64,000 bases of DNA from Solwaraspora sp. WMMD791 (GTDB lineage: Bacteria; Actinomycetota; Actinomycetes; Mycobacteriales; Micromonosporaceae): positions 1,736,001 to 1,800,000 of the forward strand of contig NZ_CP120737.1 in assembly GCF_029581195.1 (NCBI RefSeq), given 5' to 3'. A model generated the notes under the pieces. That model did no database searches. It was not told the origin of the DNA and saw only the letters and a list, made by a program, of their open reading frames with translations. Each line of letters opens with the position of its first letter. Position 1 is the first letter of the stretch. A program made the position numbers and the translations under genes. Shown in pieces: positions 846-18,803 of the stretch.

Positions 846-849
846 GCCA

Positions 850-3470: not shown

Positions 3471-4377
3471 GCCGGTACCACCGCACGGACGCTGGGTGCT
3501 CGTCACCGGCGCGTCGTCGGGGCTGGGCCGGCAGGCCACGGTCGAACTCACCCGACACGGCTTCAACGTCTTCGCCGCCGTGCGACGGGCCGCCGACGGC
3601 GCGGACCTGCGGCCGGCCGGCACCGGAGCCGTCCACCCCGTACTGCTGGACGTCACCGACGACGCGGCGCTGCACCGCGCGGCGGAGGAGATCGCCGCCG
3701 TGACCGGCGCGGCGGGCCTGTGGGGGCTGGTCAACAACGCGGGGATCTGCATCACCGCGCCGCTGGAGTGCGTCACCCGGGAGCAGTTGCGGATCCAACT
3801 GGAGACCAACGTCGTCGGGTCGGTGATGGTCACCCGGGCGATGCTGCCGGCGCTGCGGAGGTGCGGCGGCCGGATCGTGAACGTCACGTCGGGGCTCGGC
3901 ACGGTCGCGGTGCCGTACCTGGGCGCGTACGCGGCGTCGCAGTTCGCCAAGGAGGCGCTCAGCGACATCATGCGTCGGGAGCTGCGCGCCTTCGGCATCG
4001 CGGTGAGCGTCGTACAGCCTGGCGCGATCATGACCCCGATCTGGCGCAAGACCCGGGAGACCGCGTTGCGCACCCTGCAGGCGGCACCGGAGTCGGTGGC
4101 CGGGCTCTACCGGTCGTCGTTGCTGAGCTTCGTCGACGCCAACGAACAGGGCGCTCTCGCCAGCACCACCACGATGCAGGACTTCGCCGACGCGGTCCGC
4201 ACCGCGCTGACCGCACACCGGCCGAAGATCCGCTACGTCGTCGGCGCCGACGTCAAGAAGGCCCGGTTCATGACCCGGCTGTTGCCGGCTTCCGCCTTCG
4301 ACCGTCAGCTCGGCGCGATCGTCGGCCCCCCGCCGGCCGTCGGCCGGGAACCCGCCAGTACCTCCCCCGGCCGCTGA
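3454..4377 (+). CDS. Short-chain dehydrogenase/reductase with YxxxQ active site
   Basis: A 307-residue classical SDR. It has a TGASSGLG cofactor motif near residue 18, NNAG, and the catalytic Ser in VNVTSG (S146). The active-site helix reads AYAASQFAK. Y159 is present, but the position of the catalytic Lys is Gln (Q163), with a Lys three residues later (K166). The ATG has a clear CGGAGGA site and overlaps the previous gene by 17 bases. It could reduce a ketone or oxidise an alcohol in the pathway if activity survives the substitution. A non-catalytic or mechanistically altered role is possible. Confidence 0.85.
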   Translation: MWINREPVPPHGRWVLVTGASSGLGRQATVELTRHGFNVFAAVRRAADGADLRPAGTGAVHPVLLDVTDDAALHRAAEEIAAVTGAAGLWGLVNNAGICITAPLECVTREQLRIQLETNVVGSVMVTRAMLPALRRCGGRIVNVTSGLGTVAVPYLGAYAASQFAKEALSDIMRRELRAFGIAVSVVQPGAIMTPIWRKTRETALRTLQAAPESVAGLYRSSLLSFVDANEQGALASTTTMQDFADAVRTALTAHRPKIRYVVGADVKKARFMTRLLPASAFDRQLGAIVGPPPAVGREPASTSPGR

Positions 4378-4386
4378 GGAGACCTC

Positions 4387-5604
4387 GTGACCCACGCACC
4401 GCAACATTCCACCCTGATCCTCGGCGAGGAGATGATCTCGCCGCTGCATCCGCTCTACGACGGGCTGCGGGTCGACGGACCGGCCCGGCCGGCGTACCTC
4501 GCCACCGACCATCCGGTATGGATCGTCACCCGCTACGACGACGTCCGGACCGTCCTGGCGAGCCCGCACGTGGCCCGGGACGCGACCGCCGCCGCCGAGC
4601 TGTTCACCACGGTCACCGGCGTGCACCGTCCGGTGATCGGCGGCACGCTGATCGGGCACATGCTCAACGCCGACCCGCCGGACCACACCCGACTGCGGTC
4701 GCTGGTGACCCGGGCGTTCACCACCCGACGGGTGGAGCACCTGCGGCCCCGGGTGGAGCAGATCGCCGACCGGCTGCTCGACGCGATCGCCGACCAGGAT
4801 CAGGTCGACCTGATGTCCAGCTACTGCTTCCCGCTGCCGTTGGCGGTCATCGGCGACATGCTCGGCATCCCCGCCGACGGCCAGGAGCGTTTCCGGGGCT
4901 GGGCGCAGCAGCAGGCCACCCCGCTGTCGCCGGACGCCGCCGAGGCCGTCGCCGCCGAGATCACCGCCTACCTGGAGGAGCTCATCGCGGCCAAGCAGGC
5001 GCATCCGGCAGACGACCTGCTGACCGCGTTGATCCAGGCCCGCGACGACGGCGACCGGCTGAGCGGGTCCGAACTCGTCGCCATGACCTACCTGATGATC
5101 ATGGCCGGTTTCGAGACGACCATGAACCTGATCGGCAACGGCGTACTCACCCTGCTGCGCCACCCGGACCAGCTCGCCGCGATCCAGGCCGACCCCGGCC
5201 TGCTACCGAAGGCGATCGAGGCGTACCTGCGCTACGACGGCCCGGTGCTGATGTCGATGCTGCGGTTCACCACCGCCCCCGTCCAGGTCGGCGAGGTGAC
5301 CATCCCGGAAGGTTCCTTCCTGCTCGCCTCGCTGGCGCACGCGAACCGCGATCCGCAGCGCTTCCCACCTCAGCAGGCGTACGACGTCCGCGGCCCCTCC
5401 GACGGCCACCTCGGCTTCGGCCACGGCATCCACTACTGCATCGGGGCGCCGCTGGCCCGGGTGGAGGGCCAGATTGCGATCGGCCGGCTGCTGCAGCGCT
5501 TCCCGCAGCTGTCGCTGGCCGCCCCGGTGGAGAGCCTGCGCTGGTTGGACACCACGTTCCTGCGCGCACTGATCAGCCTGCCCGTATCGACGAAAGGCGC
5601 ATGA
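4387..5604 (+). CDS. Cytochrome P450 with altered ExxR motif
   Basis: A 405-residue bacterial P450 starting at GTG 4387 behind a GAGGAGACC site. The I-helix oxygen-activation motif is AGFETT (residues 240-245). The heme loop is FGHGIHYCIG, with the thiolate Cys at 351. The K-helix reads IEAYLRY, so the usually near-invariant Glu of ExxR is Ala279 while R282 remains. The gene is 9 bases after the SDR and overlaps the next start (ATGA), so it belongs to the tailoring operon. It probably hydroxylates or couples the peptide/polyketide product. No ferredoxin gene is nearby. Confidence 0.92.
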   Translation: MTHAPQHSTLILGEEMISPLHPLYDGLRVDGPARPAYLATDHPVWIVTRYDDVRTVLASPHVARDATAAAELFTTVTGVHRPVIGGTLIGHMLNADPPDHTRLRSLVTRAFTTRRVEHLRPRVEQIADRLLDAIADQDQVDLMSSYCFPLPLAVIGDMLGIPADGQERFRGWAQQQATPLSPDAAEAVAAEITAYLEELIAAKQAHPADDLLTALIQARDDGDRLSGSELVAMTYLMIMAGFETTMNLIGNGVLTLLRHPDQLAAIQADPGLLPKAIEAYLRYDGPVLMSMLRFTTAPVQVGEVTIPEGSFLLASLAHANRDPQRFPPQQAYDVRGPSDGHLGFGHGIHYCIGAPLARVEGQIAIGRLLQRFPQLSLAAPVESLRWLDTTFLRALISLPVSTKGA

Positions 5605-6053
5605 GCATGCCTACCGGAGCTACCGCCCGTACCGCCGCCGAGCGGTTGTTCGCCCACCACCTCGACCTGCTCGAGCGCAACGCCATCGCCGACTGGGTCG
5701 CCCTGTTCACCCCCGACGGCGTGCTGGAGTTCCCGTACGCCCCGGCGGGCTGGCCGGCCGTCTTCCGCGGCCACGAACAGATCCGCGCACAGATGGACAA
5801 GTACGCCGAGAACCTGTCACTGCGCTTCGACGAACTGCGGTTCCACCCGAGCGCCGCGCCGGACCTGGTGGTCGCCGAGTTCACCGGCACCGGCACCGCG
5901 TTGGCCACCGGGCTGCCGGTACATCAGACGTACATCTCGGTGGTGTGGACCTCAGGCGATCAGATCCGCCACTACCGGGACTTCTGGAACCCGGCGGTGG
6001 TCCTGGCCGCGCTGGGTGGGGAGTCCGCAGCGGCCGAGGTGGCCCGTGGTTGA
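5601..6053 (+). CDS. SnoaL-like (NTF2-fold) protein
   Basis: A 150-residue protein starting at ATG 5601, which overlaps the P450 stop (ATGA). Sequence features of the SnoaL/PhzA-B-like NTF2 superfamily include an N-terminal helix (ERLFAHHLDLL), the FTPDGVLEFPY strand, the RGHEQIRAQM segment and a C-terminal HYRDFWNP stretch. Members are small cone-shaped cyclases, isomerases or hydrolases in natural-product pathways, or product-binding scaffolds. The long in-frame region upstream of 5601 is only a shadow of the P450 and SDR genes. The reaction cannot be deduced from sequence. Confidence 0.8.
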   Translation: MSMPTGATARTAAERLFAHHLDLLERNAIADWVALFTPDGVLEFPYAPAGWPAVFRGHEQIRAQMDKYAENLSLRFDELRFHPSAAPDLVVAEFTGTGTALATGLPVHQTYISVVWTSGDQIRHYRDFWNPAVVLAALGGESAAAEVARG

Positions 6054-6098
6054 GCCGACCGCCGACGGCCACGTCCCGGCACGACGGGGTCGATCAGG

Positions 6099-8042
6099 AT
6101 GACCGCAGGAGTACGTGCCGTCGTCGCCCACCCCGGGTTCGCCGGGCCGCCGCCGGTCGACCGTGACGCGGCGACCCGGCGGTTGGCCCAGCTGCACCGG
6201 CAGCGGGCCGCCGCGCTGGCCGCCGACTGCCCCGGTGACGACATCCGGTCCCAGTGGCGGGCCCGCGCCTTCCCCGTGCTCGCCGCGCTGGCGCCGGTGA
6301 TGACCTCGACCGAAGGGGAGATCACCTACCCGGGCGACCCGATGTGTCTGTACGCGGCGTTGAGCGTCACCGTCGACGCGGCCCTGCAGTCGGCGGCCGC
6401 CGCCCCCGAGCACCGCGCCGCCTTCCCCGGACTCTGCCCCGACTGGGGTGTCGCCCCGTCGAAGGCCTACCGGCTCGCCGCGCAGCACGGGCCACGGGGC
6501 TGGCACACCGCGGACAGCAACTCCGACCGCAGTGTCTTCGACCCCCGCGTCTGGGACGCCCCCGCACGGGAGCAGCTGCGCGACGACGTACGCCGCCGTC
6601 GGCCCCGGGTCTTCCTCGTCAGCACCGTCTCCCCCGGCCACCGGTACGCGCTGCAAATGGCCGAACTGGTGAAAAGGGAGGTCCCCGACTGCCTGGTGGT
6701 GTTCGGCGGGCGGCACATCGACGAGACGATGCGCTACCGCCCGGACGGCACCCTCGCGCTGGAGTACAGCGCCACCCTGCGGGCCATCGACGAGGGCCGG
6801 GCCCGGCCGGTGGTCGACTTCCTCATCTCCGGTGACGGCTACTTCAGCTTGCACCTGCTGATGCAGGCCATCGCGCTGTCGATGGACATCCGCACCCGCG
6901 CCACCGACGTCGACGAGGTGGTGGCGACACTGGACCTGCTCGCCGCCGCCGGCGAGCAGGTCCCCGGTACGTCGCTGCTGTGCGCGCGTACCGCCGACGC
7001 GGTGCACGCCTTCCCGATCAAGGGTGCCGCATACGATCTGGCCGACCTGCCGATGCCGTACCAGGGTTTCGCGATCCGCGCCCGGTTCCCGGTCTTCCCC
7101 CGCCCCGACGGCACTCCGGCGCGCACCGCCCACATGACCGTCTCCAACGCCTGCCCGTACCACTGTGACTTCTGCTCGGAGGCGGCGCCGCTCGCCGGCG
7201 GGCTGCGGCGGTTCCGGACCGAACCGGTGGCAGCCGCCCTGGAACGGATATGTGCGTGCGTGAGCTACGGAGCGGAGGCGGTCTTCTTCGACGACTCGAT
7301 CTTCTGGAGTGGGAACTTTCCGCTGATCCGGGCCTTCTGCACGGAACTGGCCGCGCTGCGGGTGGCCAGCACCCCGGCGGAGCTGCCGCCCCGGTACCGC
7401 AAGTGGATCGAGGACGAAGGCGACTGGCAGCGGCTGCGGCAGTTGCGCTTCGGCGGGCAGGTCACCGTCGACCTGCTGACCACCCTGCACAAGGAGACCG
7501 ATGTGGTCGACACGCTGCGGCTGCTCAAGCAGGCCGGCTGCGGCTACCTCTACCTCGGTATCGAAAGCATGTCCGAGCAGGTGATGGTCAACATTCACAA
7601 GAATCTGCGCCGATCGGCGCAGTTCCCCTGGCCGCAGAAGGTACGGACCGCGTTGGAACGCATCCGCGACGCGGGTATCCCGGTCGGCTCGTCGGTGCTG
7701 TTCGGCCTGGAGGGCGAGGATCGCACATCGATCGAGGAGACGATCGACGGCGTGGGCGAACTGATCGACGCCGGCCTGTTGATGCTGGCCAGCCCGAACA
7801 TCCTCACCTACCATCCGGCGACCCCGATCACCCGGCAGCATCAGATGGCCGACTCGCTCGACTACCACTCGCCCACCGTGGACAATCGACCACCGTACAT
7901 CTATTTCGAGGAGGCATTTCCCGGGGTCGTCTCACGGCGGTTGACCGAGGACGACATCTGGTACATCCACGAGGCGACCCAGCGGCGCTGGGGCACCCGG
8001 CGCAACTCGGCGCCGGCGGAGCCGGCCGCCGATCCGCACTGA
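6099..8042 (+). CDS. Radical SAM protein with B12-binding-like N-terminal region
   Basis: A 647-residue protein. The [4Fe-4S] signature CPYHCDFC places cysteines at 352, 356 and 359 (Cx3Cx2C). Downstream there are radical-SAM barrel features (FFDDSIFW, GCGYLYLGIES, GIPVGSSVLFGLEGE). Residues about 165-260 look like a cobalamin-binding Rossmann region (a VFLVSTVSPGH strand, then VVFGGRH), but the canonical DxHxxG is not seen. This is the layout of B12-dependent radical-SAM methylases or rearranging enzymes. It starts 45 bases after the SnoaL gene, still in the operon direction. Substrate unknown; methylation of an unactivated carbon is a reasonable guess only. Confidence 0.85.
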   Translation: MTAGVRAVVAHPGFAGPPPVDRDAATRRLAQLHRQRAAALAADCPGDDIRSQWRARAFPVLAALAPVMTSTEGEITYPGDPMCLYAALSVTVDAALQSAAAAPEHRAAFPGLCPDWGVAPSKAYRLAAQHGPRGWHTADSNSDRSVFDPRVWDAPAREQLRDDVRRRRPRVFLVSTVSPGHRYALQMAELVKREVPDCLVVFGGRHIDETMRYRPDGTLALEYSATLRAIDEGRARPVVDFLISGDGYFSLHLLMQAIALSMDIRTRATDVDEVVATLDLLAAAGEQVPGTSLLCARTADAVHAFPIKGAAYDLADLPMPYQGFAIRARFPVFPRPDGTPARTAHMTVSNACPYHCDFCSEAAPLAGGLRRFRTEPVAAALERICACVSYGAEAVFFDDSIFWSGNFPLIRAFCTELAALRVASTPAELPPRYRKWIEDEGDWQRLRQLRFGGQVTVDLLTTLHKETDVVDTLRLLKQAGCGYLYLGIESMSEQVMVNIHKNLRRSAQFPWPQKVRTALERIRDAGIPVGSSVLFGLEGEDRTSIEETIDGVGELIDAGLLMLASPNILTYHPATPITRQHQMADSLDYHSPTVDNRPPYIYFEEAFPGVVSRRLTEDDIWYIHEATQRRWGTRRNSAPAEPAADPH

Positions 8043-8111
8043 GCGACACCGTCGCCACCAGCCGACACCGGTTCCCCACCAGCGACAGCGGCAGGAGCAG
8101 GAGCAGCACCG

Positions 8112-8930
8112 ATGGACACCATGTTGGACACGTTGCGTACGATCGTGCGGGACCGCAGCCGAGGGATTCCCGACGAGGACTTCACCCTGCGCGGCCTGTG
8201 GAGCGTCGACTACCGCGCCTACCCCACCCCGTACGAGCGGTTCATGACGTACAGCTTCGTGATGGCGCAGGCGAAGCGGCAAGGTTGCTGCTATGCCGAC
8301 TTTGGATCGGTCCGGCTCAGCGGCGAGGTCGACGCCCTGCTCGGCCAGGACAGCCGCGAGGTACGGGGTCTGTCGGTGGAGGAGGACATCGCGATCCTGG
8401 ACGCCGCGTTCGGCTCGCTGCCCACCCGGCCCACCCGCCGGCACCTCATCGACGGCCTGCCGCAGGACAAGGCGCTGGTCCGAGCGAGGATCGTCGTCGA
8501 CGAGGCGATGGCGCTGCTGAGCGCGACCGGCGGGCGGCGGGTCGCGAACGTGGGGGTGATGGGCAACCTGATCCACCACCTGCGCACCGAGGACGTCCAG
8601 ATCACCGCCAGTGACTTCGATCCGGACCTGATCGCCAACGGCATTCTCGGCGTACCGGTGGTGTCGGGGCAGGAGAGCGCCCGGCTGATCGCCGAGAGCG
8701 ACGTCGCGCTCGTCTGCGGGGAGACCCTCCCGAGCCACACGCTGACGGCGCTGCTGGGCACTGCCGCCGAGCACGGCACCCGCCTGGTGGTGTTCGCCGT
8801 CACCGGCTGCCACTTCGCCGAAGCGTACTGCACGGACTTCGGTATCGACGTGGTGGTCAGCGAGCCGCAGCCGCAGTACCTCTTCCAGGGACAGTCGACG
8901 ATCGACGTCTACCGCCGTCGGTCGGGCTGA
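8112..8930 (+). CDS. DUF364-like Rossmann protein, last gene of the cluster
   Basis: A 272-residue protein starting at ATG 8112 behind a repeated AGGAG site. The C-terminal half (about 135-260) has a Rossmann-like pattern (VANVGVMGN strand, ASDFDPD, ALVCGETLPSHTL, VVFAVTGCHF). This resembles the PF04016/DUF364 'heavy-metal chelation' family, where a TGSTLVNGTL-like loop and a GPS-like loop form the binding site. The N-terminal half is not recognised. No catalytic function is established for the family. Its position right after the radical-SAM gene suggests a partner or later step in the same pathway. Family assignment is by eye. Confidence 0.6.
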   Translation: MDTMLDTLRTIVRDRSRGIPDEDFTLRGLWSVDYRAYPTPYERFMTYSFVMAQAKRQGCCYADFGSVRLSGEVDALLGQDSREVRGLSVEEDIAILDAAFGSLPTRPTRRHLIDGLPQDKALVRARIVVDEAMALLSATGGRRVANVGVMGNLIHHLRTEDVQITASDFDPDLIANGILGVPVVSGQESARLIAESDVALVCGETLPSHTLTALLGTAAEHGTRLVVFAVTGCHFAEAYCTDFGIDVVVSEPQPQYLFQGQSTIDVYRRRSG

Positions 8931-8967
8931 TCCGTCACCCCGGGTTGATCATGATCGGCCAGGTCGG

Positions 8968-9396
8968 TCAGGTGAGACGCCGGGGCCAGCCCACCGGACG
9001 CACCACCCGGGCCCGCACGGCCCGGCGGGCGGCAGACACGTCGGTCCTGCCGGCCGGACGGCGGGACACCGCGCGGCGGGGTCGGCCAACGGCGTCGACC
9101 CCGCCATGCAGGACCGGCATGCGCCCTCGGGCGACGCCACGCAGCGGAGCCGGGACCACCGTGGGCTGGATCTTGGTCAGCTCCTCCAGCACCTGCTGCA
9201 GCAGCTCCTCCAGCGGTACGCCGAGCGCGCGGCAGATCGAGGCGAGGATCTCCGACGACGGCTCCTTGCGGCCGCGTTCCAACTCCGACAGGTACGGCGT
9301 GGACACGCCAGCGGCCCGCGCCACGTCCTGCAGGGTCCGCCCCTGCCGCAGCCGGATCCTGCGCAACACCGAGCCGATAACCTGTCGCAACAGCAT
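8968..9396 (-). CDS. ClgR-like XRE-family transcriptional regulator
   Basis: A 142-residue protein with one HTH domain (about 12-66). The run MLLRQVIGSVLRRIRLRQG, then VSTPYLSELERGRKEPSSE and LGVPLEELL, is very like ClgR, the actinobacterial activator of clp genes. ATG 9396 is chosen because it matches the family N-terminus and has a GGAG site just upstream; a longer frame to 9510 adds unlike residues. It lies downstream of the lone clpP on the same strand, separated by a strong terminator, so it probably has its own promoter. The C-terminus is long and Arg-rich and lacks the Ala-Ala end of ClgR/PopR that marks those proteins for ClpP degradation. It probably controls the neighbouring clpP. 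Confidence 0.8.
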   Translation of the reverse strand: MLLRQVIGSVLRRIRLRQGRTLQDVARAAGVSTPYLSELERGRKEPSSEILASICRALGVPLEELLQQVLEELTKIQPTVVPAPLRGVARGRMPVLHGGVDAVGRPRRAVSRRPAGRTDVSAARRAVRARVVRPVGWPRRLT

Positions 9397-9552
9397 CTCG
9401 CTCCGCCCGCAGTCGTGATCACCTCTGGCGGCGGAACACGCACCAGCCGCTGAAGTCCAATCTAGCTGACCGCGATGCGCTTGTGGAGCGCGACGGCACG
9501 GGACGGACACGGCGACGACGGACCGGTCGGCATCGGTCGACGATGTGACGAA

Positions 9553-9589
9553 CGTACCGGCGGCGCGGGCCGACCGCGCCGCCGGTACG
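9553..9589 (-). terminator. Strong hairpin terminator downstream of clpP
   Basis: A perfect 16-bp inverted repeat (9553-9568 with 9574-9589) encloses a 5-base loop, 42 bases beyond the clpP stop codon. The stem is mostly GC. There is no long U tract, which is common for actinobacterial terminators. It separates clpP from the ClgR-like gene. Nothing else coding is seen between 9397 and 9630; the promoter of the regulator should lie there. Confidence 0.8.
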
Positions 9590-9630
9590 ACGACGAATGT
9601 GATGCCGCGACGTCAGACGGCCTTATCGGA

Positions 9631-10245
9631 TCAGGAGATCGACCCTTCCAACGACATCTGAGTGGTCGTGGTGATGACGTGGTCGATCATTCCGTACTCA
9701 CGGGCCTCCTCGGCGGTGAACCACCGGTCGCGGTCGGAGTCGGCCTCGATCTCCTCGTACGTGCGACCGGTGTGGAAGGCGATCCGCTCGATCGTGGTCC
9801 GCTTGACGTAGAGCATGTTCTCCGCCTGGATCGCGATGTCCGCGGCGGTGCCGCCGATGCCACCGGAAAGCTGGTGCATCATGATCCGGGTGTGCGGCAG
9901 CGAATAGCGCTTGCCGGGCGCACCCGAGCAGAGCAGGAACTGCCCCATCGACCCGGCGAAGCCGAGCGCGAGCGTGGCCACGTCGTTCTTGACGTAGTGC
10001 ATCGTGTCGTAGATCGCCATCCCGGCGCTGATGGAGCCACCCGGGGAGTTGATGTAGAGGAAGATGTCGCGCTTGCTGTCCTCGGCGGCGAGCAGCAGCA
10101 TCTGAGCGCAGATCGCGTTCGCCGAGGCGTCGTCGACCTGGGTCCCGAGGAAGATCACCCGCTCCTGGAGCAACCGGTGGTAGACCTGGTCACCGAAGCT
10201 GGCCGCCGCCCCGTCACCGCGCATGGCAGGTGTCTTGAAGTCCAT
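9631..10245 (-). CDS. clpP: Lone ClpP protease subunit paralogue
   Basis: A 204-residue serine peptidase subunit of the Clp proteolytic chamber. The triad is intact: Ser99 (GFAGSMGQ), His124 (MMHQLSGG) and Asp173 (SDRDRWF), with the 25- and 49-residue spacings of E. coli ClpP. It is nearest by eye to the ClpP1 type (FGDQVYHRLL, INSPGGSISAGMAIYDTM). ATG 10245 is chosen because a GAGGAG site lies 9 bases upstream; the frame runs on to 10296. It stands alone, without a tandem clpP partner or clpX, unlike the usual actinobacterial clpP1P2-clpX locus. It lies between a divergent EF-Tu and a ClgR-like regulator, next to a biosynthetic cluster. It may be an extra copy that protects against a ClpP-targeting product. 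Confidence 0.92.
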   Translation of the reverse strand: MDFKTPAMRGDGAAASFGDQVYHRLLQERVIFLGTQVDDASANAICAQMLLLAAEDSKRDIFLYINSPGGSISAGMAIYDTMHYVKNDVATLALGFAGSMGQFLLCSGAPGKRYSLPHTRIMMHQLSGGIGGTAADIAIQAENMLYVKRTTIERIAFHTGRTYEEIEADSDRDRWFTAEEAREYGMIDHVITTTTQMSLEGSIS

Positions 10246-10314
10246 CCGTAAATCTCCTCGGTCGAGCGGATCGTCATCGGGTGTCCGTTCCAGCATCGCG
10301 CACGCCGAGGGAGT

Positions 10315-10366
10315 CCGCCCGTGGTTCTGCTGTCAGGAGATTAGCTGAGAGCAGAACCACGGGCGG
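10315..10366 (-). terminator. Long hairpin after the EF-Tu gene
   Basis: A perfect 17-bp inverted repeat (10315-10331 with 10350-10366) surrounds an 18-base loop, 14 bases past the tuf stop codon. It is the expected transcription stop for tuf and lies between tuf and clpP. The remaining 69 bases before the clpP start (10246-10314) could hold a clpP promoter, but no clear boxes are visible. Confidence 0.85.
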
Positions 10367-10380
10367 GGCGACAGCCGTGA

Positions 10381-11568
10381 TCAGTCGAGCAGGGTCGTCA
10401 CCGTTCCGGCGGCCACCGTACGGCCGCCCTCCCGCACGGCGAATCCGAGCCCGACGTCCATCGCGACCGGCCTGCCGAGCTCCACCGTCACCTCGACAGT
10501 GTCACCCGGCATCGCCATCGTCCGGTCGCCCAGGTGCACCGACCCGACCACGTCCGTCGTACGGAAGTAGAACTGCGGCCGGTAGTTGGCAAAGAACGGC
10601 GTGTGCCGCCCACCTTCGGCGGTGGTCAGCACGTACAGGCGGGCGGTGAACCGCTGGTGCGGCGTGACGCTGCCCGGCAGCGCCACCACCTGGCCCCGCT
10701 GCACCTGGTCACGCTTGACCCCGCGCAGCAGGACGGCGGCGTTGTCACCGGCCTCGGCGGCGTCCAGCGACTTGCCGAACGTCTCCAGCCCGGTCGCGAC
10801 CGTCGACAGGGTCGGACCAAGGCCGACCACCTCCACCTGGTCGCCGAGGCGCAACGTGCCGCGCTCGACCGCACCGGTCACCACGGTCCCCCGGCCGGAG
10901 ATGGTCAGCACGTTCTCGATCGGCATCAGGAACGGCTCGCCGAGCTCGCGCGGCGGCACCGGAACGTACCGGTCGACGGCGTCGAGCAGCTCCACGACGG
11001 AGGCCACCCAGCGCGGGTCACCCTCGAGCGCCCGCAGCGCCGACACCCGGACCACCGGAAGCTCGTCGCCGGGGAACCCGTACTCGGAAACCAGCTCCCG
11101 GACCTCGAGCTCGACCAGGTCGAGCAGCTCCGGGTCGTCGACCGCGTCGGCCTTGTTCATCGCCACCACCAGGTACGGCACGCCGACCCGCCGGGCGAGC
11201 AGCACGTGCTCACGGGTCTGCGGCATCGCCCCGTCGAGCGCCGAGACGACCAGGATCGCCCCGTCGACCTGCGCCGCCCCCGTGATCATGTTTTTGACGA
11301 AGTCGGCGTGGCCGGGCATGTCCACGTGGGCGTAGTGCCGGGTGGCCGTCTCGTACTCGACGTGGGAGATGTTGATGGTGATGCCCCGCGCCACCTCCTC
11401 CGGTGCCCGGTCGATGCCGTCGAACGAGACGAACCGGTTGACGGCCGGGTCCCGGTCGGCGAGGACCTTGGTGATCGCGGCGGTCAGGGTGGTCTTGCCG
11501 TGGTCGACGTGACCCATCGTGCCGATGTTGAGGTGCGGCTTCGCGCGCACGAACTGACTCTTGGCCAT
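10381..11568 (-). CDS. tuf: Divergent EF-Tu (Tuf3-like), candidate antibiotic-resistant copy
   Basis: A 395-residue elongation factor Tu, which delivers aminoacyl-tRNA to the ribosome. GTPase motifs are GHVDHGKTT (19-27), RGITI (61-65), DMPG (83-86, usually DCPG) and NKAD (138-141). ATG 11568 matches the family start ([12 protein letters not shown]) and has a GGAG site. The gene stands alone, outside the usual rpsL-rpsG-fusA-tuf operon, and resembles the divergent Tuf3 type of streptomycetes. Aligned by eye to E. coli numbering, position 124 is Arg (R127 here, usually Gln) and position 275 is Ala (A278, usually Gly). Position 262 is Gly and 260 is Thr. Changes at 124 and 275 are known to give kirromycin and GE2270A resistance respectively. 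Confidence 0.93.
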
Positions 11569-11968
11569 GATGACACTGCTCCAGAGTGGAGTCTGCTTGG
11601 CGGACGACGTCACGCGGGCGGGATGCCAGGCCCCGCGAACCGCGCCAGAACCGCACTCCACGACGTACGCCGGGAAAGGACGACGCCGGGAGGTCCGGGC
11701 CACCCTCCTCCGTGGTTCTGCCGCAGCGGGAGGAGGGTCAGCCTCGGGTATCAGCCAGCCATGCGCACACGACGACGGCGCCCGGCAGGTGGAAACCTGC
11801 GGGCCGCACAACGCCGACGGTGCCGAACATGGTGGTCACGCTAGTCCGCAACGCCGACCGGGGCGATCGAATTCCCGGCCGGTACGGGCACCCGGGGAAC
11901 GCCGGGTCAACCCAGGTGGTCAGGAGGCCCAGGTGGTCAGGTGGTCAGGTGGTCAGGTGGTCAGGTGG
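11569..11968. other. 400-base non-coding region upstream of tuf
   Basis: This holds the tuf leader and promoter and the 3' flank of the LLM gene. It contains a 10-bp-stem hairpin (11702-11738), a smaller 6-bp hairpin with a GGAA loop (11785-11800) and a run of 8-base tandem repeats at its far end. Reading frames crossing it on both strands have no family resemblance and are judged non-coding. No convincing -35/-10 pair was found. Confidence 0.6.
11702..11738 (-). promoter_or_regulatory. Hairpin in the tuf upstream region (attenuator or terminator)
   Basis: Arms 11702-11711 and 11729-11738 form a perfect 10-bp stem with a 17-base loop, ending 134 bases before the tuf start codon on the same strand. 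It could end transcripts coming from the LLM gene 231 bases further upstream. It could also act in the tuf leader as an attenuator. Sequence alone does not decide. Confidence 0.5.
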
Positions 11969-12931: not shown

Positions 12932-12985
12932 GGCCGGTCATCTACCCGATGGCCGATTCCGCCAATCCCGTCGCGGATCGCCCCG

Positions 12986-13394: not shown

Positions 13395-14423
13395 ATGAAC
13401 GACACCTCGCCACCGGGGTGGCATCCCGCACGGGTCGGCATCACCGGGGTCGGTGCCAGCCTGCCCGAGCGGGAACTGACCACCGCCGACCTGCAGGAGC
13501 GGATCGCCGCCGCCAGTGACGTCGCGTTGCCGCCCGGGCTGTTCCGGATGATGACCGGCATCGACCACCGCCGGATCGCCGCCGACGACGAGTACGCCTC
13601 GACGTTCGCCGTCCGGGCGGCCCGGCAGGCCCTCGCCGCCGCCGGGCGGGACGTCGACGAGGTCGACCTGCTGCTGTTCGCCTCGGCCAGCCGGGACCTG
13701 GTCGAGCCGGCGACCGCGCACATCGTGCAGGCCGAGCTGGGTGGCCACGCCCACGCGATGGATGTGACCAACGCCTGCAACAGTTTCCTCAACGGCATCG
13801 ATCTGGCCCGGTCGATGATCCTGGCCGGGCGCGCCCACCGGGCACTGGTGGTGACCGGCGAGACCCCGACCCGGGTGATGCGGCCCCGGCTGGACAGCCT
13901 GGCGCAGGCGCGGACGGCGTTCGCCGGCTACACCTTCGGCGACGGCGGCGCGGCGGTGCTGGTCGAGCCGGTACGCCGGGGCGGGATCGTCGACGTCGAC
14001 ACCGAGACCCGGTCGGCGCACTGGTCGGTCGGTGGCATCTTCGGCGGCGGCTCCCGGCACCCGCGCGGCGACGAACACACCTACTTCCATGGCGACGGCC
14101 ACACACTGCGGGGCGTCTTCGAACAGATCGGCACCGACATCCTGGACCGGGTGCGCCGGCGCACCGGCTGGGACTGGGTCGACTACGACCGGGTGCTGGT
14201 GCACCAGGTGAGCGTGCCGTACCTGGAGCGGTTCATCGAGGTCACCGGCGTACCGAAGGAGAAACTGGAGGTCACCGTCGGCGAGCTGGGCAACCTGGCC
14301 AGCGCCACGCTCGGCGTCCAGCTGGCCCGCGTCGACGCCGAGCTGCGCCGCGGCGACCGGGTGTTGGCGATCGGCCTGGGCGGTGGGGTCAGCGTGATGA
14401 CGATGGTCTGGGAGAAGCCGTGA
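13395..14423 (+). CDS. Ketoacyl-ACP synthase III family enzyme (OleA-like)
   Basis: A 342-residue thiolase-superfamily enzyme with the Cys-His-Asn set of KAS III/OleA: C128 (VTNACNSF), H270 (LVHQVSVPY) and N300 (GELGNLASA). The Gly-rich C-terminal loop is GLGGGVSVMTM. It probably condenses acyl-CoA or acyl-ACP substrates. It opens a five-gene operon and overlaps the next gene by 4 bases (GTGA). The company of an OleC-like adenylating enzyme and an OleD-like reductase suggests head-to-head (non-decarboxylative) condensation as in OleA, rather than fatty-acid initiation. That role is inferred from context. Confidence 0.88.
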   Translation: MNDTSPPGWHPARVGITGVGASLPERELTTADLQERIAAASDVALPPGLFRMMTGIDHRRIAADDEYASTFAVRAARQALAAAGRDVDEVDLLLFASASRDLVEPATAHIVQAELGGHAHAMDVTNACNSFLNGIDLARSMILAGRAHRALVVTGETPTRVMRPRLDSLAQARTAFAGYTFGDGGAAVLVEPVRRGGIVDVDTETRSAHWSVGGIFGGGSRHPRGDEHTYFHGDGHTLRGVFEQIGTDILDRVRRRTGWDWVDYDRVLVHQVSVPYLERFIEVTGVPKEKLEVTVGELGNLASATLGVQLARVDAELRRGDRVLAIGLGGGVSVMTMVWEKP

Positions 14424-15208
14424 CGCGGGCGGTGGAACAGGGCGGCGGCACCCGCGCGAGCGCGCCCGGCGGGCCACTGTGGGTGGTGGTGCCGGCGTAC
14501 CAGGAACAGGCCCGCATCGGTGACACCCTGGCCGCCCTCGCCGACCAGACCGACCGGGACTTCACCCTGGTCGTGGTCGACAACGGCTCGACCGACGGCA
14601 CCGCCGACGTGGTCGAACGGTTCGCCGCCGACGCGCCGTTCCCGGTACGGCTGCTGCACGAGCCGTGCAAGGGCGTCGGTGCCGCCGTCGACACCGGGTT
14701 CCGGTACGCCATCGCGCACGGTGCGCTGCTGCTGGCCCGCACCGACGCGGACTGCCTGCCGCAACCCGGTTGGGTGGCGGCGGCGCGGGCCGGGCTGGCC
14801 GGCGGCGCCGGGCTGGTCTGCGGCGCGATCCGGGCCCGCCGTGACGAGCACGGCCCGCTGGGTCGGGCCGGGTTCCGGCTGCTGGTCTTCCTCGCCGCAT
14901 CGTTCGGCCGGCTCCGGCCGGCGCACCGACGCACCGGCGGCTACCTGGCGCCGTACCGGATGCACGCCGGCAACAACATGGCGGTCACCGCCGAGCTGTA
15001 CCAGGCGTGCGGGGGGATGCCGCGCCGGCCGTCCCCGACCGACCGGACCTTCCTCAACCGGGTACGGCGTACCACGTCGGCGATCAGCCACCGGCGCGAC
15101 ATGGTGGTGGAGAACTCGACCCGCCGGCTACGGGCGTACGGCATCCGGCGCACCGCCGCCTGGTACCTGGACCGGGGTGCCGGCACGTTGACCGAGGATC
15201 CCCGGTGA
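14420..15208 (+). CDS. Family 2 glycosyltransferase
   Basis: A 262-residue GT-A enzyme starting at GTG 14420, coupled to the KAS III gene by a 4-base overlap. Motifs are VVPAYQEQARI, VVVDNGSTDGT for nucleotide-sugar binding and a metal-binding DxD (RTDADC) near residue 111. There is no long membrane helix, though a hydrophobic stretch (LLVFLAASFG) lies near 160. It probably attaches a sugar to the operon product or to a lipid intermediate. The sugar and acceptor are not predictable. Confidence 0.85.
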   Translation: MTRAVEQGGGTRASAPGGPLWVVVPAYQEQARIGDTLAALADQTDRDFTLVVVDNGSTDGTADVVERFAADAPFPVRLLHEPCKGVGAAVDTGFRYAIAHGALLLARTDADCLPQPGWVAAARAGLAGGAGLVCGAIRARRDEHGPLGRAGFRLLVFLAASFGRLRPAHRRTGGYLAPYRMHAGNNMAVTAELYQACGGMPRRPSPTDRTFLNRVRRTTSAISHRRDMVVENSTRRLRAYGIRRTAAWYLDRGAGTLTEDPR

Positions 15209-15233
15209 GCCCGCGCCGGGCGGGAGGCCGCTG

Positions 15234-16715
15234 ATGCTGGACCGACTAGCGGCCACGTTGCGGGCCGATCGGCACCGGCCTGCGGTGCTGACCGCCGCGC
15301 CGCTGACCGGCCGGCCCCGGGTGCGGGCCACCACCGGGGAGCTGGCCGACCTGACCGACGGGTACGTCGCCGCGCTGCACCGGCACGGGCTGACCGCCGG
15401 CGACACCCTCGGGGTGGCGGTGCGGCCGGGTCCCCGGTCGTTGGCGGTGCTGCTGGCCGCCTACCACCTGGGGGTGCGGGTGGCGGTGCTGGACCCGACC
15501 GCCGGGCCGGAGGTGCTGACCGCGCGGTTGGCGCTGGCCCGCCCGACGCTGGTGCTGGCCGACGCGGCGGCGCAGGCGGTGGCCGGCTGGGCCCGGCCGC
15601 TGGCCCGGCGGGCCCACCTGGCGCTGCCGGAGCTGACCCGGATCGCACCGGTGCGTACCGTCGGTCGGCGGTTGCCCGGTGCCGCACCGGTGCTGCCGGC
15701 GGGGTCCGGGCCGGTGCCGGCGGCGTACGACGGTGACGGCGACGCCGTGATCATCTTCACCTCCGGCACGACCAGCCGGCCGAGGGCCGTGGTGCACACC
15801 CGGTCCGGTCTGTCCGCCGGGATGCGTGCGGTGACCGACCTGGTCGGGCCGACGCCACAGGTGCCGGTGCTCGGCGGGATGTTCTTCGTGCTGGTGCCGG
15901 CGCTGGCCGCCGGGGCACCGGTGGCGTTGCCGGCGAGGTCGGCGGCGCTGCTGGCGCGGCAGGTGGGCCGGCTCCGCCCGCAGGCCACGTACCTGACCCC
16001 GCCGCAGTTGCGGGCCCTGCTGGACCACTCCCCCCGGCTGACCGGGCAGGTGTTCAGCGGGTCGGCGCCGGTCAGCGCCGCGCTGCTGGGCCGGGTCCGC
16101 CGGGCCGGGGCGCACCGGGCGTACGGGGTGTACGCGCTGACCGAACTCTTCCCGGCCGCCGCCGTCGAGCAGGCCGAGAAGGCGGCGTACGCCGACGACG
16201 GCGATCTCGTCGGCACCCCGCTGCCGGGGGTGGCGGCCCGCGTCGACGACACCGGCCAGGTGTGGCTGACCGGGCCCGGGCAGGCGGACCGCTACCTGGG
16301 TGAGCCGCCGCTGACCGAGGTGGCCACCGGCGACGTCGGCCGACTCGAGGGGGGTCGGCTGGTGCTCGCCGGGCGGTGCAAGGACATGGTGCTGCGGGCG
16401 GCGGAGAACATCTACCCCGGGCTGTACGAGCCGGCGCTGCACGTGCCGGGGGTGGCCCTGGCGGTGCTGGTCGGGGTGCCCGGGGTGGACGGCGACGAAC
16501 AGCTCGTGGCGCTGGTGCAGCCGGATCCGGGGGCAGACCAGGCGCGGCTGCGCGCGGCGCTGCGCCCGGTGCTGGCCCGGATGGGGTCGGCCCGCCCGGA
16601 CCGGGTGGTGTTCGCCCGGGTGCCGCTGGCCGGCCGGTCCCGCAAACCGGACCGACAGGCGGCGGCGCGGCTACTGGCCGGGCAGCCGACGGCGACGGCG
16701 GTGGACGGTGACTGA
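15234..16715 (+). CDS. AMP-forming adenylating enzyme (OleC-like)
   Basis: A 493-residue ANL-superfamily enzyme. The P-loop-like motif is FTSGTTSRPRAVVH (near 176-189), the A5-like motif is YGVYALTELFP, the A7 Asp lies in VATGDVGRLEGG and the A8 region is LAGRCKDMVLRAAENIYP. A C-terminal Lys (SRKPDRQ) is in the place of the A10 Lys. The Gly-rich, Pro-Val middle is like OleC, which makes beta-lactones from beta-hydroxy acids by adenylation. An ordinary acyl-CoA ligase is the alternative. ATG 15234 has a GGGAGG site and follows the previous stop by 25 bases. It overlaps the P450 start by 8 bases. Confidence 0.85.
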   Translation: MLDRLAATLRADRHRPAVLTAAPLTGRPRVRATTGELADLTDGYVAALHRHGLTAGDTLGVAVRPGPRSLAVLLAAYHLGVRVAVLDPTAGPEVLTARLALARPTLVLADAAAQAVAGWARPLARRAHLALPELTRIAPVRTVGRRLPGAAPVLPAGSGPVPAAYDGDGDAVIIFTSGTTSRPRAVVHTRSGLSAGMRAVTDLVGPTPQVPVLGGMFFVLVPALAAGAPVALPARSAALLARQVGRLRPQATYLTPPQLRALLDHSPRLTGQVFSGSAPVSAALLGRVRRAGAHRAYGVYALTELFPAAAVEQAEKAAYADDGDLVGTPLPGVAARVDDTGQVWLTGPGQADRYLGEPPLTEVATGDVGRLEGGRLVLAGRCKDMVLRAAENIYPGLYEPALHVPGVALAVLVGVPGVDGDEQLVALVQPDPGADQARLRAALRPVLARMGSARPDRVVFARVPLAGRSRKPDRQAAARLLAGQPTATAVDGD

Positions 16716-17856
16716 GTCACGGCCGCGCGCCGGGCGGGGCCGCCGCCGGGACCGCCGGGTCTACCTGGCCAGCCACCCGGTGCTGTTCGCCCTGTTGACG
16801 GCGACCCGACGGGTGCCGGTACGGCGGATCGGCCGGACCGTGCTGGTACACGACGCGGCGCCGTTCGCCGACGCGCTGCGGCGGGTGCCGCTGGACCGGT
16901 CGGCGCAGCGGACCACCGCCGGGGCCGCCCGGCGGGCCACCGGCGGTGACGGGTTCCTGTTCGACCAGGAGGGTTACGGGCACCGGCGGACCCGTCGGGA
17001 CACGGCCACGATGTTCGGCACCGAAGGCGTCGCCCGGTTGCGGCCGGTCTGGCTCGACGTGCTGCGCCGGCGGCTGGCACCGCTGGCCGACGGGGCCGAG
17101 GTCGACATCGTCGACGTGGTCGCCGAACTGGCCGGGGCGGCCACCGCGGCGCTGCTCGGCGTCGACGTCGCCGCTGGCGCGGCCGACAGCCCGGGGCACG
17201 CGTTGACGGCGGCGGCCCGGGCAGCGGCGGCGACCGCGGCCCGGCACCACCTGCCGGGGCTGCGGTGGCCGGGGCAGGCGCGACGCGACGAACGGGCCAC
17301 CGCGCGGGCCGCCGCCGAGCTGGCCCGGCTGCTGGGCGTGGCACCCGAGGAGGCGGCCCGGGCCAGCGTGCTGGCGGTCGCCTCGATCAACACCACGATG
17401 GCGGCGATCCCCCGGGCGGTCGCCTGGTGCGCCGACGACCAGTGGTGGGCGGCGGCGGCCGACGCCGGCTCCCGCGACGCGCTCGTCGCCGAACTGCTGC
17501 GGGTCACCGCCGCCAGCCCGGTGCTGCCCCGGGTGGCGGCCGGCCCCGCTGAGCTCGCCGGTGTCGGGGTCCGGGCCGGCGACCGGCTGCTGCTGGTGGC
17601 CCGGCATGCGGCCCACGCCGGGCGGCCGGCTCCCGACCCGGGTACGCCGGTGCCGGCGACGGTCGGGCAGCTGGTGTTCGGCACCGGGCCGCACCGCTGT
17701 CCCGGTGCCCGGCTGGCGCACGCCCAGTTGGCCGACGTGCTCGCGGCGTTGGCGCCGTACCGGCCGATGGTGACCGGTGCCCGGGTGGACCGCCGGTCGG
17801 CGTTGCCGGGCTGGGCCCGGTTGACGCTGCGGGCGACGGTCCGGGCCGGGCGGTGA
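16708..17856 (+). CDS. Cytochrome P450 of the KAS III operon
   Basis: A 382-residue P450 starting at GTG 16708. The heme loop is FGTGPHRCPG with the thiolate Cys at 331. The K-helix ELLR is at 262-265. The I-helix reads VASINTTMA instead of the usual AGxxTT, but keeps two Thr. The N-terminal 40 residues are very basic. It overlaps both neighbours (8 bases upstream, GTGA downstream), so it is part of the operon. It probably oxidises the condensed acyl chain. No redox partner gene is seen nearby. Confidence 0.88.
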   Translation: MTESRPRAGRGRRRDRRVYLASHPVLFALLTATRRVPVRRIGRTVLVHDAAPFADALRRVPLDRSAQRTTAGAARRATGGDGFLFDQEGYGHRRTRRDTATMFGTEGVARLRPVWLDVLRRRLAPLADGAEVDIVDVVAELAGAATAALLGVDVAAGAADSPGHALTAAARAAAATAARHHLPGLRWPGQARRDERATARAAAELARLLGVAPEEAARASVLAVASINTTMAAIPRAVAWCADDQWWAAAADAGSRDALVAELLRVTAASPVLPRVAAGPAELAGVGVRAGDRLLLVARHAAHAGRPAPDPGTPVPATVGQLVFGTGPHRCPGARLAHAQLADVLAALAPYRPMVTGARVDRRSALPGWARLTLRATVRAGR

Positions 17857-18803
17857 GCGCCCGGCTGGCCGGGGTACGGGTCGCGGTGACCGGTGCCAGC
17901 GGGTTCTGCGGGTCGGTGGTGGCGCGGGCGGCGGCGGCCGCCGGGGCGCAGGTCGTCGCGGTGGGTCGTCGGCCGGGCCCGGTGGGGCGGCACGTGCCCT
18001 GGGACGCCGGTCGTCAGGTGCCGGACCTGGGCGGGGTCGACGTCGTGCTGCACCTGGCGGCGGCGGTGGGGGATCCGGCACCCGGGGCGCAGGCGGCGTA
18101 CCACGCGGTGAACGTGGCCGGCACCGACCGGCTGCTGCGGGCGGTGGCGGGTCGGCCGCTGGTCTGGGTCAGCAGCGCCAGCGTCTACCGGCCCGGTGGC
18201 GGCGCGGCGCCGATCCGGGAGGACCATCCGACCGACGGGCAGCGCACCGCGTACGGGCGGACGAAGGCGGCCGGTGAACGGCTGGCGTTGGCCGCCGGCG
18301 CGGTGGTGCTGCGGCCCCGGGCGGTGTACGGGGCCGGGGATCCGCATCTGCTGCCCCGGCTGCTGGGCGCGGTCCGGGCGGGACGGCTGCCGCTGCCCGG
18401 ACCGGACGTGCGGATGAGCATGACCGCGGTGGAGAACCTGGCCGACGCGGTGCTGGCGGCGGTGCACTGGCCGGCCGGGGCGTACAACGTCGCCGACGCG
18501 ACGCCGTACTCGCGCGACGCGGTGGTGACCGGGGTGTTGGCGGCGCTGGGCCGGCCGGCGCGGCTGGTGCGGGTGCCGGTCCGGGTGGCGCTGGGCGCGG
18601 CGACGCTGGCCACCGTGGCCGGTCGGCTCGGCGTGCCGGGCACCGGCCGGGTGACCCGGTACGCCGTGGAGCAACTGGCGTACGAGACGGTGCTGGACCT
18701 GGGGCGGGCGTACGAGCAGGGCTGGTCGCCGCGCCGCGCGTTGCCGGACTTCCTCGCTGAGCTGCCCACGAACCCGGCTGCCGGGCTGCCCAGGCATCAA
18801 TGA
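17853..18803 (+). CDS. NAD(P)-dependent epimerase/reductase (OleD-like extended SDR)
   Basis: A 316-residue extended SDR. It has TGASGFCG at the N-terminus, VSSASVY, and the active-site AYGRTK (YxxxK intact) near residue 132. The layout follows 3-beta-HSD/OleD-type reductases, including the variable C-terminus that binds the substrate. OleD reduces the beta-keto acid made by OleA, so in this operon it would act between the KAS III and the adenylating enzyme. A nucleotide-sugar epimerase supplying the GT2 is the alternative. It is the last gene of the operon and is coupled to the P450 by a GTGA overlap. Confidence 0.85.
   Translation: MSARLAGVRVAVTGASGFCGSVVARAAAAAGAQVVAVGRRPGPVGRHVPWDAGRQVPDLGGVDVVLHLAAAVGDPAPGAQAAYHAVNVAGTDRLLRAVAGRPLVWVSSASVYRPGGGAAPIREDHPTDGQRTAYGRTKAAGERLALAAGAVVLRPRAVYGAGDPHLLPRLLGAVRAGRLPLPGPDVRMSMTAVENLADAVLAAVHWPAGAYNVADATPYSRDAVVTGVLAALGRPARLVRVPVRVALGAATLATVAGRLGVPGTGRVTRYAVEQLAYETVLDLGRAYEQGWSPRRALPDFLAELPTNPAAGLPRHQ

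What the first reader, a model, noticed from the sequence alone, without database searches (positions are those of the whole stretch)
8968..11568. ClgR-like regulator, lone ClpP and divergent EF-Tu beside a biosynthetic cluster: possible double self-resistance module
Two proven antibiotic targets, ClpP and EF-Tu, occur as orphan copies back-to-back on the - strand, converging on the end of an NRPS/PKS cluster. Neither is in its normal operon. It is established that ADEP and clipibicyclene-type clusters carry an extra clpP, and that kirromycin/GE2270-type producers carry resistant EF-Tu. A cluster flanked by both would be unusual: one product hitting two targets, two products, or a regulatory link through ClgR. 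The link to the cluster is inferred from position only.
Basis: partly seen in the sequence, partly recalled or inferred. Interest (0 to 1): 0.82.

Follow-up and report, generated by a model that had tools for sequence, protein, structure and literature searches.

The report
Spare antibiotic-tolerant EF-Tu with RNA switch
The gene next to the antibiotic-type cluster is a spare translation factor that many soil actinomycetes carry whether or not they have that cluster, and its message begins with a small conserved reading frame and RNA fold that looks like a built-in sensor of stalled protein synthesis.

Summary
In detail: a ClgR-like regulator, an accessory ClpP and a divergent EF-Tu lie in a row on the minus strand, and housekeeping tuf and clpP1P2 are elsewhere. 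EF-Tu3 is in 122 of 300 family genomes; none of 31 EF-Tu3 loci outside the genus has this ClpP nearby. The EF-Tu is EF-Tu3 (tuf3), with Ala at E. coli positions 230 and 275 and Arg at 124, recalled as inhibitor-resistance sites. Its leader is the unexpected part: a WblC/WhiB7-type promoter, an apparently leaderless uORF (MF...) whose UGA opens a hairpin, and a hairpin loop pairing with a downstream strand, with compensatory changes. A model of this RNA, run over 394 genomes of the class, gave 39 hits, all just upstream of an EF-Tu gene; the loop pairing, not used in the model, holds in 37 of the 38 new ones. Rfam 15 has no such family and six searches of the open literature showed no description. 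Most likely it is a uORF attenuator switching on a spare EF-Tu when translation slows; the switching is inferred.

The parts
11870..11875 (-). WblC/WhiB7-type box (GGAATT, one mismatch to GAAAWY), 45 nt upstream of the uORF ATG
   Evidence: 62 of 64 uORF-bearing leaders have GAAAWY with at most 1 mismatch 40-49 nt upstream of the uORF ATG, 57 of them at 44-45 nt; 5 of 64 in one shuffled control. Consensus from PMC7157823 section 10.
11838..11843 (-). -10 element TAGCGT, 7 nt before the uORF ATG, so transcription is predicted to start at or next to the ATG (leaderless)
   Evidence: TANNNT 5-10 nt before the ATG in 52 of 64 leaders; most start sites lie 7-8 bp after -10 in WblC promoters (PMC7157823)
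11738..11830 (-). u[33 protein letters not shown], stop UGA
   Evidence: Coordinates. MF uORF ending at a UGACC before tuf3 in 64 leaders by script plus L021, L152 and L027, i.e. 67 of 78; 66 of 68 ATGTT words in frame, uORFs of 16 distinct lengths; 30 of 38 blind hits, all in frame, 11 lengths
11702..11738 (-). P1 hairpin: arms 11738-11729 and 11711-11702, 17-nt loop; the 5' arm starts at the A of the UGA stop
   Evidence: 10 pairs, 95.8% of cells paired, 4 pairs with two-sided changes; rows had been chosen for having a P1
11646..11720 (-). P2 loop-to-downstream pairing: CAGAACC 11720-11714 with GGTTCTG 11652-11646 (pseudoknot or loop-loop contact)
   Evidence: 7 pairs, 94.1% paired, 3 with two-sided changes; independent check on 38 blind hits: 37 have a Watson-Crick run of 6 or more, 8.5 expected from shuffles, with four different complementary sequence kinds
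10381..11568 (-). EF-Tu3 (tuf3), 395 aa
10315..10366 (-). Palindrome upstream of clpP; core TTCTGC..ACAG-N8-CTG(T/A)CAGCAGAA-like in all 7 genomes of the genus, outer flanks differ but stay complementary
   Evidence: read by eye
9631..10296 (-). accessory ClpP (ClpP3), Ser/His/Asp triad motifs present; 68% identical to one and 48% to the other housekeeping ClpP
   Evidence: triad motifs recalled
8968..9396 (-). ClgR/PopR-like XRE regulator; outside the closest relative only its first 77-95 aa match (42 aa in G004)
3..8930 (+). end of the NRPS cluster (TE, FAD monooxygenase, PapA-like, SDR, P450, SnoaL-like, B12-radical SAM, DUF364); not part of the trio
   Evidence: adjacent to the trio in 2 of 7 genomes; the SnoaL-like label is recalled, not from a call
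13395..18803 (+). KS-III / GT2 / AMP-ligase / P450 / NAD-epimerase operon, syntenic with the trio in all 7 genomes of the genus

Best explanation
The EF-Tu is EF-Tu3, a spare elongation factor predicted to be insensitive to EF-Tu drugs. It is transcribed from a WblC/WhiB7-type promoter and controlled after initiation by a conserved leader. A short, probably leaderless uORF is translated up to a UGA that opens hairpin P1, whose loop pairs with a strand about 7-60 nt downstream. Ribosomes that translate the uORF freely reach the UGA and unfold P1. When elongation is slow (EF-Tu inhibited, ribosome drugs, amino-acid starvation) the RNA folds differently and tuf3 is expressed. Shown here: distribution, promoter motif, uORF frame conservation, covarying P1 and P2, and position upstream of EF-Tu genes in every hit of the class search. 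Published for Streptomyces: WblC activation and stress expression of tuf3. Inferred: the switching, its direction, and whether it acts on transcription or translation. The accessory ClpP with its ClgR/PopR-like neighbour is most simply a back-up Clp core of the PopR-ClpP3 kind. In this genus it sits beside EF-Tu3 by inherited gene order, and the trio does not belong to the NRPS cluster.
For: Trio in 7 of 7 genus genomes, cluster beside it in 2 of 7; EF-Tu3 in 122 of 300 family genomes and 19 of 44 genera; 0 of 31 EF-Tu3 loci outside the genus have this ClpP in the stretch held, 8.9-9.9 kb each side in 29 of 31. Of 78 leaders, 66 carry a clear P1 by pattern and 4 more are found by the model at 30 bits or more. 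uORF in frame: 66 of 68 ATGTT words, 16 uORF lengths from 69 to 234 nt; blind set 30 of 30 in frame, 11 lengths. P1+P2 on 34 leaders: 95.1% of cells paired, 7 of 17 pairs with two-sided changes, 0 of 500 shuffles for percentage, two-sided pairs, two-sided cells and covariation score (5 of 500 for further pair types), slid controls lower. Class search with the model: 39 of 394 genomes, one hit each; the 38 others all lie 19-79 nt upstream and on the strand of an EF-Tu gene closer to EF-Tu3 than to housekeeping EF-Tu. P2, which the model did not pair, holds in 37 of 38 of them against 8.5 expected, with four kinds of complementary sequence. Own genome 1 hit, housekeeping tuf loci none. WblC box in 62 of 64 leaders; tuf3 is WblC-activated in S. 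coelicolor (PMC7157823 passages and section 10). EF-Tu3 residues A230 in 68 of 74, A275 in 73 of 74, R124 in 41 of 74 including the window. tuf3 stress-expressed and its product GE2270A-resistant (PMC12309360 passage).
Against: Eight of 78 leaders lack a recognisable P1 (L027, L129, L130, L151, L153, L156, L170, L173); six of these keep the uORF. Rows of the 34-leader alignment were picked for having a P1 and cut at their best P2, so its pairing percentages are inflated; the two-sided changes and the blind set are the cleaner evidence. Two-sided changes lie largely between clades, so they may be few independent events. One blind hit (L210) has no P2. P2 of single sequences often does not beat shuffles. 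P1 has no U-run after it, so it is not a plain intrinsic terminator. Ribosome-masked folding gave no change in tuf3 Shine-Dalgarno accessibility (0.40 / 0.43 / 0.42, n = 64), which speaks against simple masking; that energy model cannot represent P2. The Micromonospora-type uORF peptide is under weak constraint (ratio 0.74, n = 19), the Streptomyces N-terminus under more (0.40, n = 37). The class search used stricter filters that lose weak matches, and I did not count EF-Tu3 genes there that lack a hit. Weak matches also occur on the opposite strand of three leaders (L167, L171, L204). The resistance-site roles are recalled; one search returned nothing.
Confidence: 0.75

Rival explanations
1. 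One reading: ClpP and EF-Tu are self-resistance copies for the product(s) of the NRPS cluster.
For: Position next to the cluster in this genome and in G006; EF-Tu3 carries residues recalled as inhibitor-resistance sites; an accessory ClpP is self-resistance near the ADEP cluster of S. hawaiiensis (PMC12607617 abstract and section 4).
Against: In 5 of 7 genus genomes the trio has no such cluster beside it (whether the cluster lies elsewhere in them was not tested); EF-Tu3 in 122 of 300 family genomes; a two-module NRPS is short for an ADEP-type peptide (recalled).
Confidence: 0.04
2. ClpP3 protects against a beta-lactone or related product of the neighbouring KS-III/AMP-ligase/NAD-epimerase operon, which resembles OleA/OleC/OleD.
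For: The operon sits beside the trio in 7 of 7 genus genomes; KS-III best solved-structure hits are entries I recall as Xanthomonas OleA; best NCBIfam hit of the epimerase is OleD, and OleC is among those of the ligase. Beta-lactones inhibiting ClpP is recalled.
Against: All these NCBIfam scores are far below cut-off (OleD 92.8 of 580, OleC 46.9 of 900; MenE and FadD7 score higher for the ligase). KS-III relatives were fetched from 80 named contigs of other taxa, 67 with all five operon genes, none with any trio gene in the stretch held, 16 of the stretches being under 20 kb.
Confidence: 0.07
3. The leader RNA binds EF-Tu or another protein directly (autoregulation), and the uORF is incidental.
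For: Every hit of the class search lies before an EF-Tu gene and the RNA is folded with loop pairing. The two hits without a uORF (L197, L207) keep the hairpin, though before truncated or diverged EF-Tu-like genes.
Against: uORF start and frame are kept over widely varying lengths; six leaders keep the uORF although P1 as modelled is lost.
Confidence: 0.12
4. UGA plus pseudoknot is a readthrough site making an N-terminally extended EF-Tu3.
For: A UGAC stop followed at once by a stable hairpin in the leaders aligned.
Against: Distance from the UGA to the tuf3 ATG varies freely in frame (172, 173, 164, 167, 169, 166, 168 nt in the genus), so no fused frame is conserved.
Confidence: 0.02

Closest known systems
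EF-Tu3 / tuf3 of Streptomyces (S. coelicolor SCO1321, S. ramocissimus)
   Same: Divergent second EF-Tu beside a housekeeping copy; WblC-type promoter; uORF and hairpin also found before EF-Tu3 in Streptomyces relatives
   Different: In this genus followed by clpP3 and a ClgR-like gene; long-type leader with an extra hairpin between P1 and the P2 strand. S. coelicolor's own leader was not fetched by name
uORF attenuators of whiB7/wblC and of antibiotic-resistance ABCF genes (lmrC)
   Same: Short uORF before a resistance gene, alternative RNA structure, response to translation stress (expected here; PMC11550727 passage; PMC8546547 passages)
   Different: No U-run after P1; the conserved stop codon is the hairpin base; loop-to-downstream pairing; regulated gene is a spare copy of a drug target
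PopR-clpP3clpP4 of Streptomyces lividans
   Same: ClgR paralogue and back-up ClpP (PMC9765437 passages)
   Different: Single ClpP, no clpP4 beside it; the recalled PopR site was not found near it
clpP-ADEP of Streptomyces hawaiiensis
   Same: Extra ClpP, nearest to one housekeeping ClpP, near an NRPS cluster (PMC12607617)
   Different: Here the ClpP is conserved through the genus without the cluster

Membership tests
EF-Tu3 (tuf3) | Divergent EF-Tu paralogue beside a housekeeping tuf | tested here: met
   Two tuf genes, 66% identical
EF-Tu3 (tuf3) | GTPase residues intact | tested here: met
   H19, K24, T61, H84, N135, K136, D138 as in E. coli in the window protein
EF-Tu3 (tuf3) | Resistance to kirromycin, pulvomycin and GE2270A type drugs | not testable with these tools
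   Only residues at recalled sites: R124, A230, A275
WblC/WhiB7-activated promoter | GAAAWY near -35, TANNNT at -10 | tested here: met
   62 of 64 and 52 of 64 leaders; window has 1 mismatch in the box; -35 element and its spacing not counted
WblC/WhiB7-activated promoter | Bound and activated by WblC in this organism | not testable with these tools
   Known for S. coelicolor tuf3 (PMC7157823)
uORF attenuator | Conserved uORF overlapping an RNA structure | tested here: met
uORF attenuator | Intrinsic terminator / antiterminator pair | tested here: not met
   By reading: P1 is followed by GGCCCGG, not a U-run; other forms of attenuation stay open
uORF attenuator | Expression rises when uORF translation slows | not testable with these tools
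   Needs a reporter
Self-resistance gene of the NRPS cluster | Occurs with the cluster and not without it | tested here: not met
   Trio in 7 of 7 genus genomes, cluster adjoining in 2 of 7
ClgR | NCBIfam NF041677 cut-off (170 bits) | tested here: not met
   93.7 bits; a better match elsewhere, 111.8 bits, also below cut-off. No control genome passed the cut-off either in that search
Known Rfam family | Match to any of 4227 families | tested here: not met
   No Rfam 15 match at E up to 5 overlapping the uORF-to-P2 stretch, window 8900-13000 searched

The most novel reading that the evidence does not exclude
An undescribed RNA class in actinomycetes senses slowed elongation, including loss of EF-Tu function, through a leaderless uORF and a loop-pairing switch. 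It turns on a drug-insensitive spare EF-Tu and so gives inducible, cluster-independent tolerance to EF-Tu inhibitors on top of WblC control. In one genus this emergency EF-Tu is kept beside an emergency ClpP.
Probability: 0.45. Interest if true: 0.72.

Novelty: new variant of a known kind. Interest (0 to 1): 0.58.

Why it matters
Why Streptomyces and its relatives carry a second, normally silent EF-Tu has been open since tuf3 was reported as apparently under positive stringent control (title of van Wezel 1995, seen in a reference list). A conserved sensor at the head of its message would explain silence in growth and expression under starvation or translation drugs. It makes the question testable with one reporter, and it warns that a tuf gene beside a biosynthetic cluster is poor evidence for that cluster's target.

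Tried and rejected
Rejected: self-resistance to the NRPS product. Rejected: co-regulation of EF-Tu3 and ClpP by the shared GCAGAACCACG word; it is unexpected by chance in the window (3 hits, 0.07 expected) but in the ClpP palindrome it occurs only in G000 and G006, while the EF-Tu3 leader copy is in all seven, one base different in G004. Looked for the recalled PopR site TCTGCC-N3-GGCAGA: 4 hits with 2 mismatches in the window, 3.97 expected, none near the trio. Beta-lactone idea kept only as a rival. Ribosome-masked folding did not support Shine-Dalgarno masking. Rfam hits to microRNA families at 10310-10372 are taken as chance matches to the palindrome, far below gathering scores. Literature search for the resistance positions found nothing.

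Rows dropped before counts: of 66 pattern-positive leaders, 34 with a short linker went into A1 and 25 of the other 32 into A2 (L025, L030, L142, L167, L169, L171, L172 left out as more divergent). The promoter count used the 64 leaders with a scripted MF uORF, not all 78. In one search the extra opposite-strand match in L204 was left out.
Full report
The genes are as described. XRE 8968-9396, ClpP 9631-10296 and EF-Tu 10381-11568 lie in a row on the minus strand. The genome is 6.93 Mb in one contig and unnamed. It is in one family with M. pattaloongensis and Paractinoplanes tereljensis, judged from identical hit coordinates of named and unnamed handles (G325 and G014; G326 and G243). It holds two tandem clpP genes at 2706504-2707702, a housekeeping tuf at 3854258-3855445 and a better ClgR match at 6688277. 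So none of the trio is an only copy.

The link to the NRPS cluster fails. In all 7 held genomes of the genus (G000-G006) EF-Tu3, ClpP and the XRE gene stand together beside the same KS-III operon; in G004 the ClpP is in two pieces and only 42 aa of the XRE protein match. Genes of the NRPS cluster adjoin the trio only in G000 and G006. I did not test whether the cluster lies elsewhere in the other five. EF-Tu3 is found in 122 of 300 family genomes, 19 of 44 genera, at a threshold that excludes housekeeping EF-Tu. Of 31 EF-Tu3 loci outside the genus that I cut out (11, 20), none has this ClpP or the XRE gene in the stretch held, which is 8.9-9.9 kb each side in 29 and shorter on one side in L021 and L132. 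KS-III relatives were fetched from 80 named contigs (the best 80 of 149), mostly Streptomyces and Actinoplanes-type; 67 show all five operon genes, L056 and L060 a different set, the rest are short contigs or stretches, and none shows a trio gene. Micromonospora pattaloongensis (L035) has the luciferase-like gene, the small protein gene and the operon in the window's order without the trio, and its genome gave only one EF-Tu match at E <= 1e-100.

The EF-Tu is EF-Tu3. It is 66% identical to the housekeeping copy. In an alignment with E. coli TufB, GTPase residues are intact, while position 230 is Ala in 68 of 74, position 275 Ala in 73 of 74, and position 124 Arg in 41 of 74 including the window. 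That changes at 124, 230 and 275 give resistance to kirromycin, pulvomycin and GE2270A is recalled; a search for it found nothing. A 2025 paper states that S. coelicolor tuf3 is expressed only under stress and encodes a GE2270A-resistant protein (PMC12309360, passages read).

The leader is the finding. I collected 78 EF-Tu3 upstream regions: the window, 17 loci, 20 and 40, of which 13 are from Streptomyces and near relatives. A uORF beginning MF ends at a UGACC before tuf3 in 64 leaders by the script plus L021, L152 and L027, 67 of 78; in most of them that UGA opens hairpin P1. Of 68 ATGTT words 50-260 nt before the UGA, 66 are in frame; the uORFs have 16 lengths from 69 to 234 nt; the two out-of-frame words are extra ones in L119. 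P1 is clear by pattern in 66, and the covariance model finds L021, L029, L140 and L152 as well (30-54 bits), 70 of 78. Of the 8 without P1, six keep the uORF.

P1 and P2 are supported by covariation. On 34 compact leaders 95.1% of 572 cells pair and 7 of 17 pairs show two-sided changes. No shuffle of 500 reaches the observed percentage, two-sided pairs, two-sided cells or covariation score (5 reach the number of further pair types), and sliding by 1-3 columns drops pairing to 41-66%. These rows were picked for a P1 and cut at their best P2, so the percentages are inflated. For single sequences P2 alone often does not beat shuffled controls. In the long-type leaders (25 of 32 aligned) an extra hairpin with some two-sided changes lies between P1 and the P2 strand, and the P2 strand lies in a small predicted hairpin, so the contact may be loop to loop.

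A search by the RNA alone agrees. The model, with P1 pairs only, gives one hit in the whole genome, the EF-Tu3 leader, and none at the housekeeping tuf loci. Over 394 genomes of the class it hits 39, once each, in 6 of 138 genera and 5 families, 30 of them in one family, f33, probably the Streptomyces family. The 38 others all lie 19-79 nt upstream of an EF-Tu gene on the same strand, each nearer EF-Tu3 than the housekeeping protein. Thirty-six are near full length (383-400 aa aligned, 66-83% identical); L197 and L207 are truncated or diverged (205 and 219 aa aligned, 42-45%). The MF uORF is present in 30 of 38, all in frame with 11 lengths; 6 have another in-frame ATG, and L197 and L207 have none. 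P2 was not paired in the model, yet 37 of 38 have a Watson-Crick run of 6 or more between the P1 loop and the strand after it, 34 of them 7 or more, against 8.5 expected from shuffles. The strands are of different kinds that each stay complementary: GGACCCC/GGGGTCC, GAGCCCC/GGGGCTC, CGGGACCG/CGGTCCCG, GGTGACCCG/CGGGTCACC; with CAGAACC/GGTTCTG of the Micromonosporaceae that makes five. L210 has none. Streptomyces leaders were in the training set; no contig length is shared between the two sets.

The promoter ties in with known biology. 62 of 64 uORF leaders have GAAAWY within one mismatch 40-49 nt before the uORF ATG (5 of 64 in one shuffled control), and 52 of 64 have TANNNT 5-10 nt before it. 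WblC binds GAAAWY near -35, most starts lie 7-8 bp after -10, and tuf3 is among the WblC-activated genes co-bound by HrdB in S. coelicolor (PMC7157823, passages and section 10; HrdB also PMC6344877 passage). This predicts a leaderless uORF, which I have not seen mapped; the S. coelicolor start-site paper's main text does not mention tuf (PMC4681348, find).

Mechanism. Slowed ribosomes on the uORF would leave P1 and P2 to fold, while ribosomes reaching the UGA would open P1. wblC itself uses a uORF that responds to antibiotics and starvation (PMC11550727 passage), so tuf3 would be sensed twice. Direction and level are inferred. Masked folding showed no change in Shine-Dalgarno accessibility, and P1 has no U-run, so neither the simplest translational nor the intrinsic-terminator form is supported. 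Peptide constraint is moderate in Streptomyces (0.40, n = 37) and weak in the Micromonospora type (0.74, n = 19), which suits a rate sensor better than a sequence-specific arrest peptide.

ClpP and XRE. ClpP is 68% identical to one housekeeping ClpP and 48% to the other. In S. lividans a ClgR paralogue, PopR, activates a back-up clpP3clpP4 when ClpP1P2 fails (PMC9765437 passages), and ClpP3P4 is ADEP-insensitive (PMC12607617 section 4). The XRE-ClpP pair fits that pattern; a conserved palindrome upstream of clpP is a candidate operator. Whether EF-Tu3 shares this control is unknown.

Print status. Not in Rfam 15. Six searches of the open library on tuf3, EF-Tu3, leaders and uORFs listed no paper whose title or shown abstract describes a tuf3 uORF or leader structure, and neither did the passages or sections I read in nine papers. 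Subscription papers are mostly missing; the two founding tuf3 papers were not held, so a description there cannot be excluded.

Noticed in passing
window 13395-18803: KS-III / GT2 / AMP-ligase / P450 / NAD-epimerase operon with remote OleA, OleC and OleD resemblance, in 67 of 80 named contigs fetched from Streptomyces, Actinoplanes, Micromonospora and relatives; product unknown.
   Followed up: partly
window 10315-10366: Palindrome before clpP in all 7 genus genomes; core kept, outer flanks differ yet remain complementary.
   Followed up: partly
L197 and L207: Two genomes have the leader hairpin before a truncated or diverged EF-Tu-like gene and no in-frame ATG uORF.
   Followed up: no
L129, L130, L151, L153, L156: EF-Tu3 leaders, all five from one genus (g54), that keep the uORF but have a different or no P1.
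   Followed up: no
G004 (L019 9538-10325): The accessory clpP appears in two adjoining pieces and the XRE gene matches over 42 aa only, so they may not be functional there.
   Followed up: no
window 11913-11985: Short tandem repeat (CAGGTGGT units) at the end of the luciferase-like gene, upstream of the tuf3 promoter.
   Followed up: no
window 1-8930 with L011: Two-module NRPS with PapA-like, B12-radical SAM and DUF364 proteins, seen beside the trio only in G000 and G006.
   Followed up: partly
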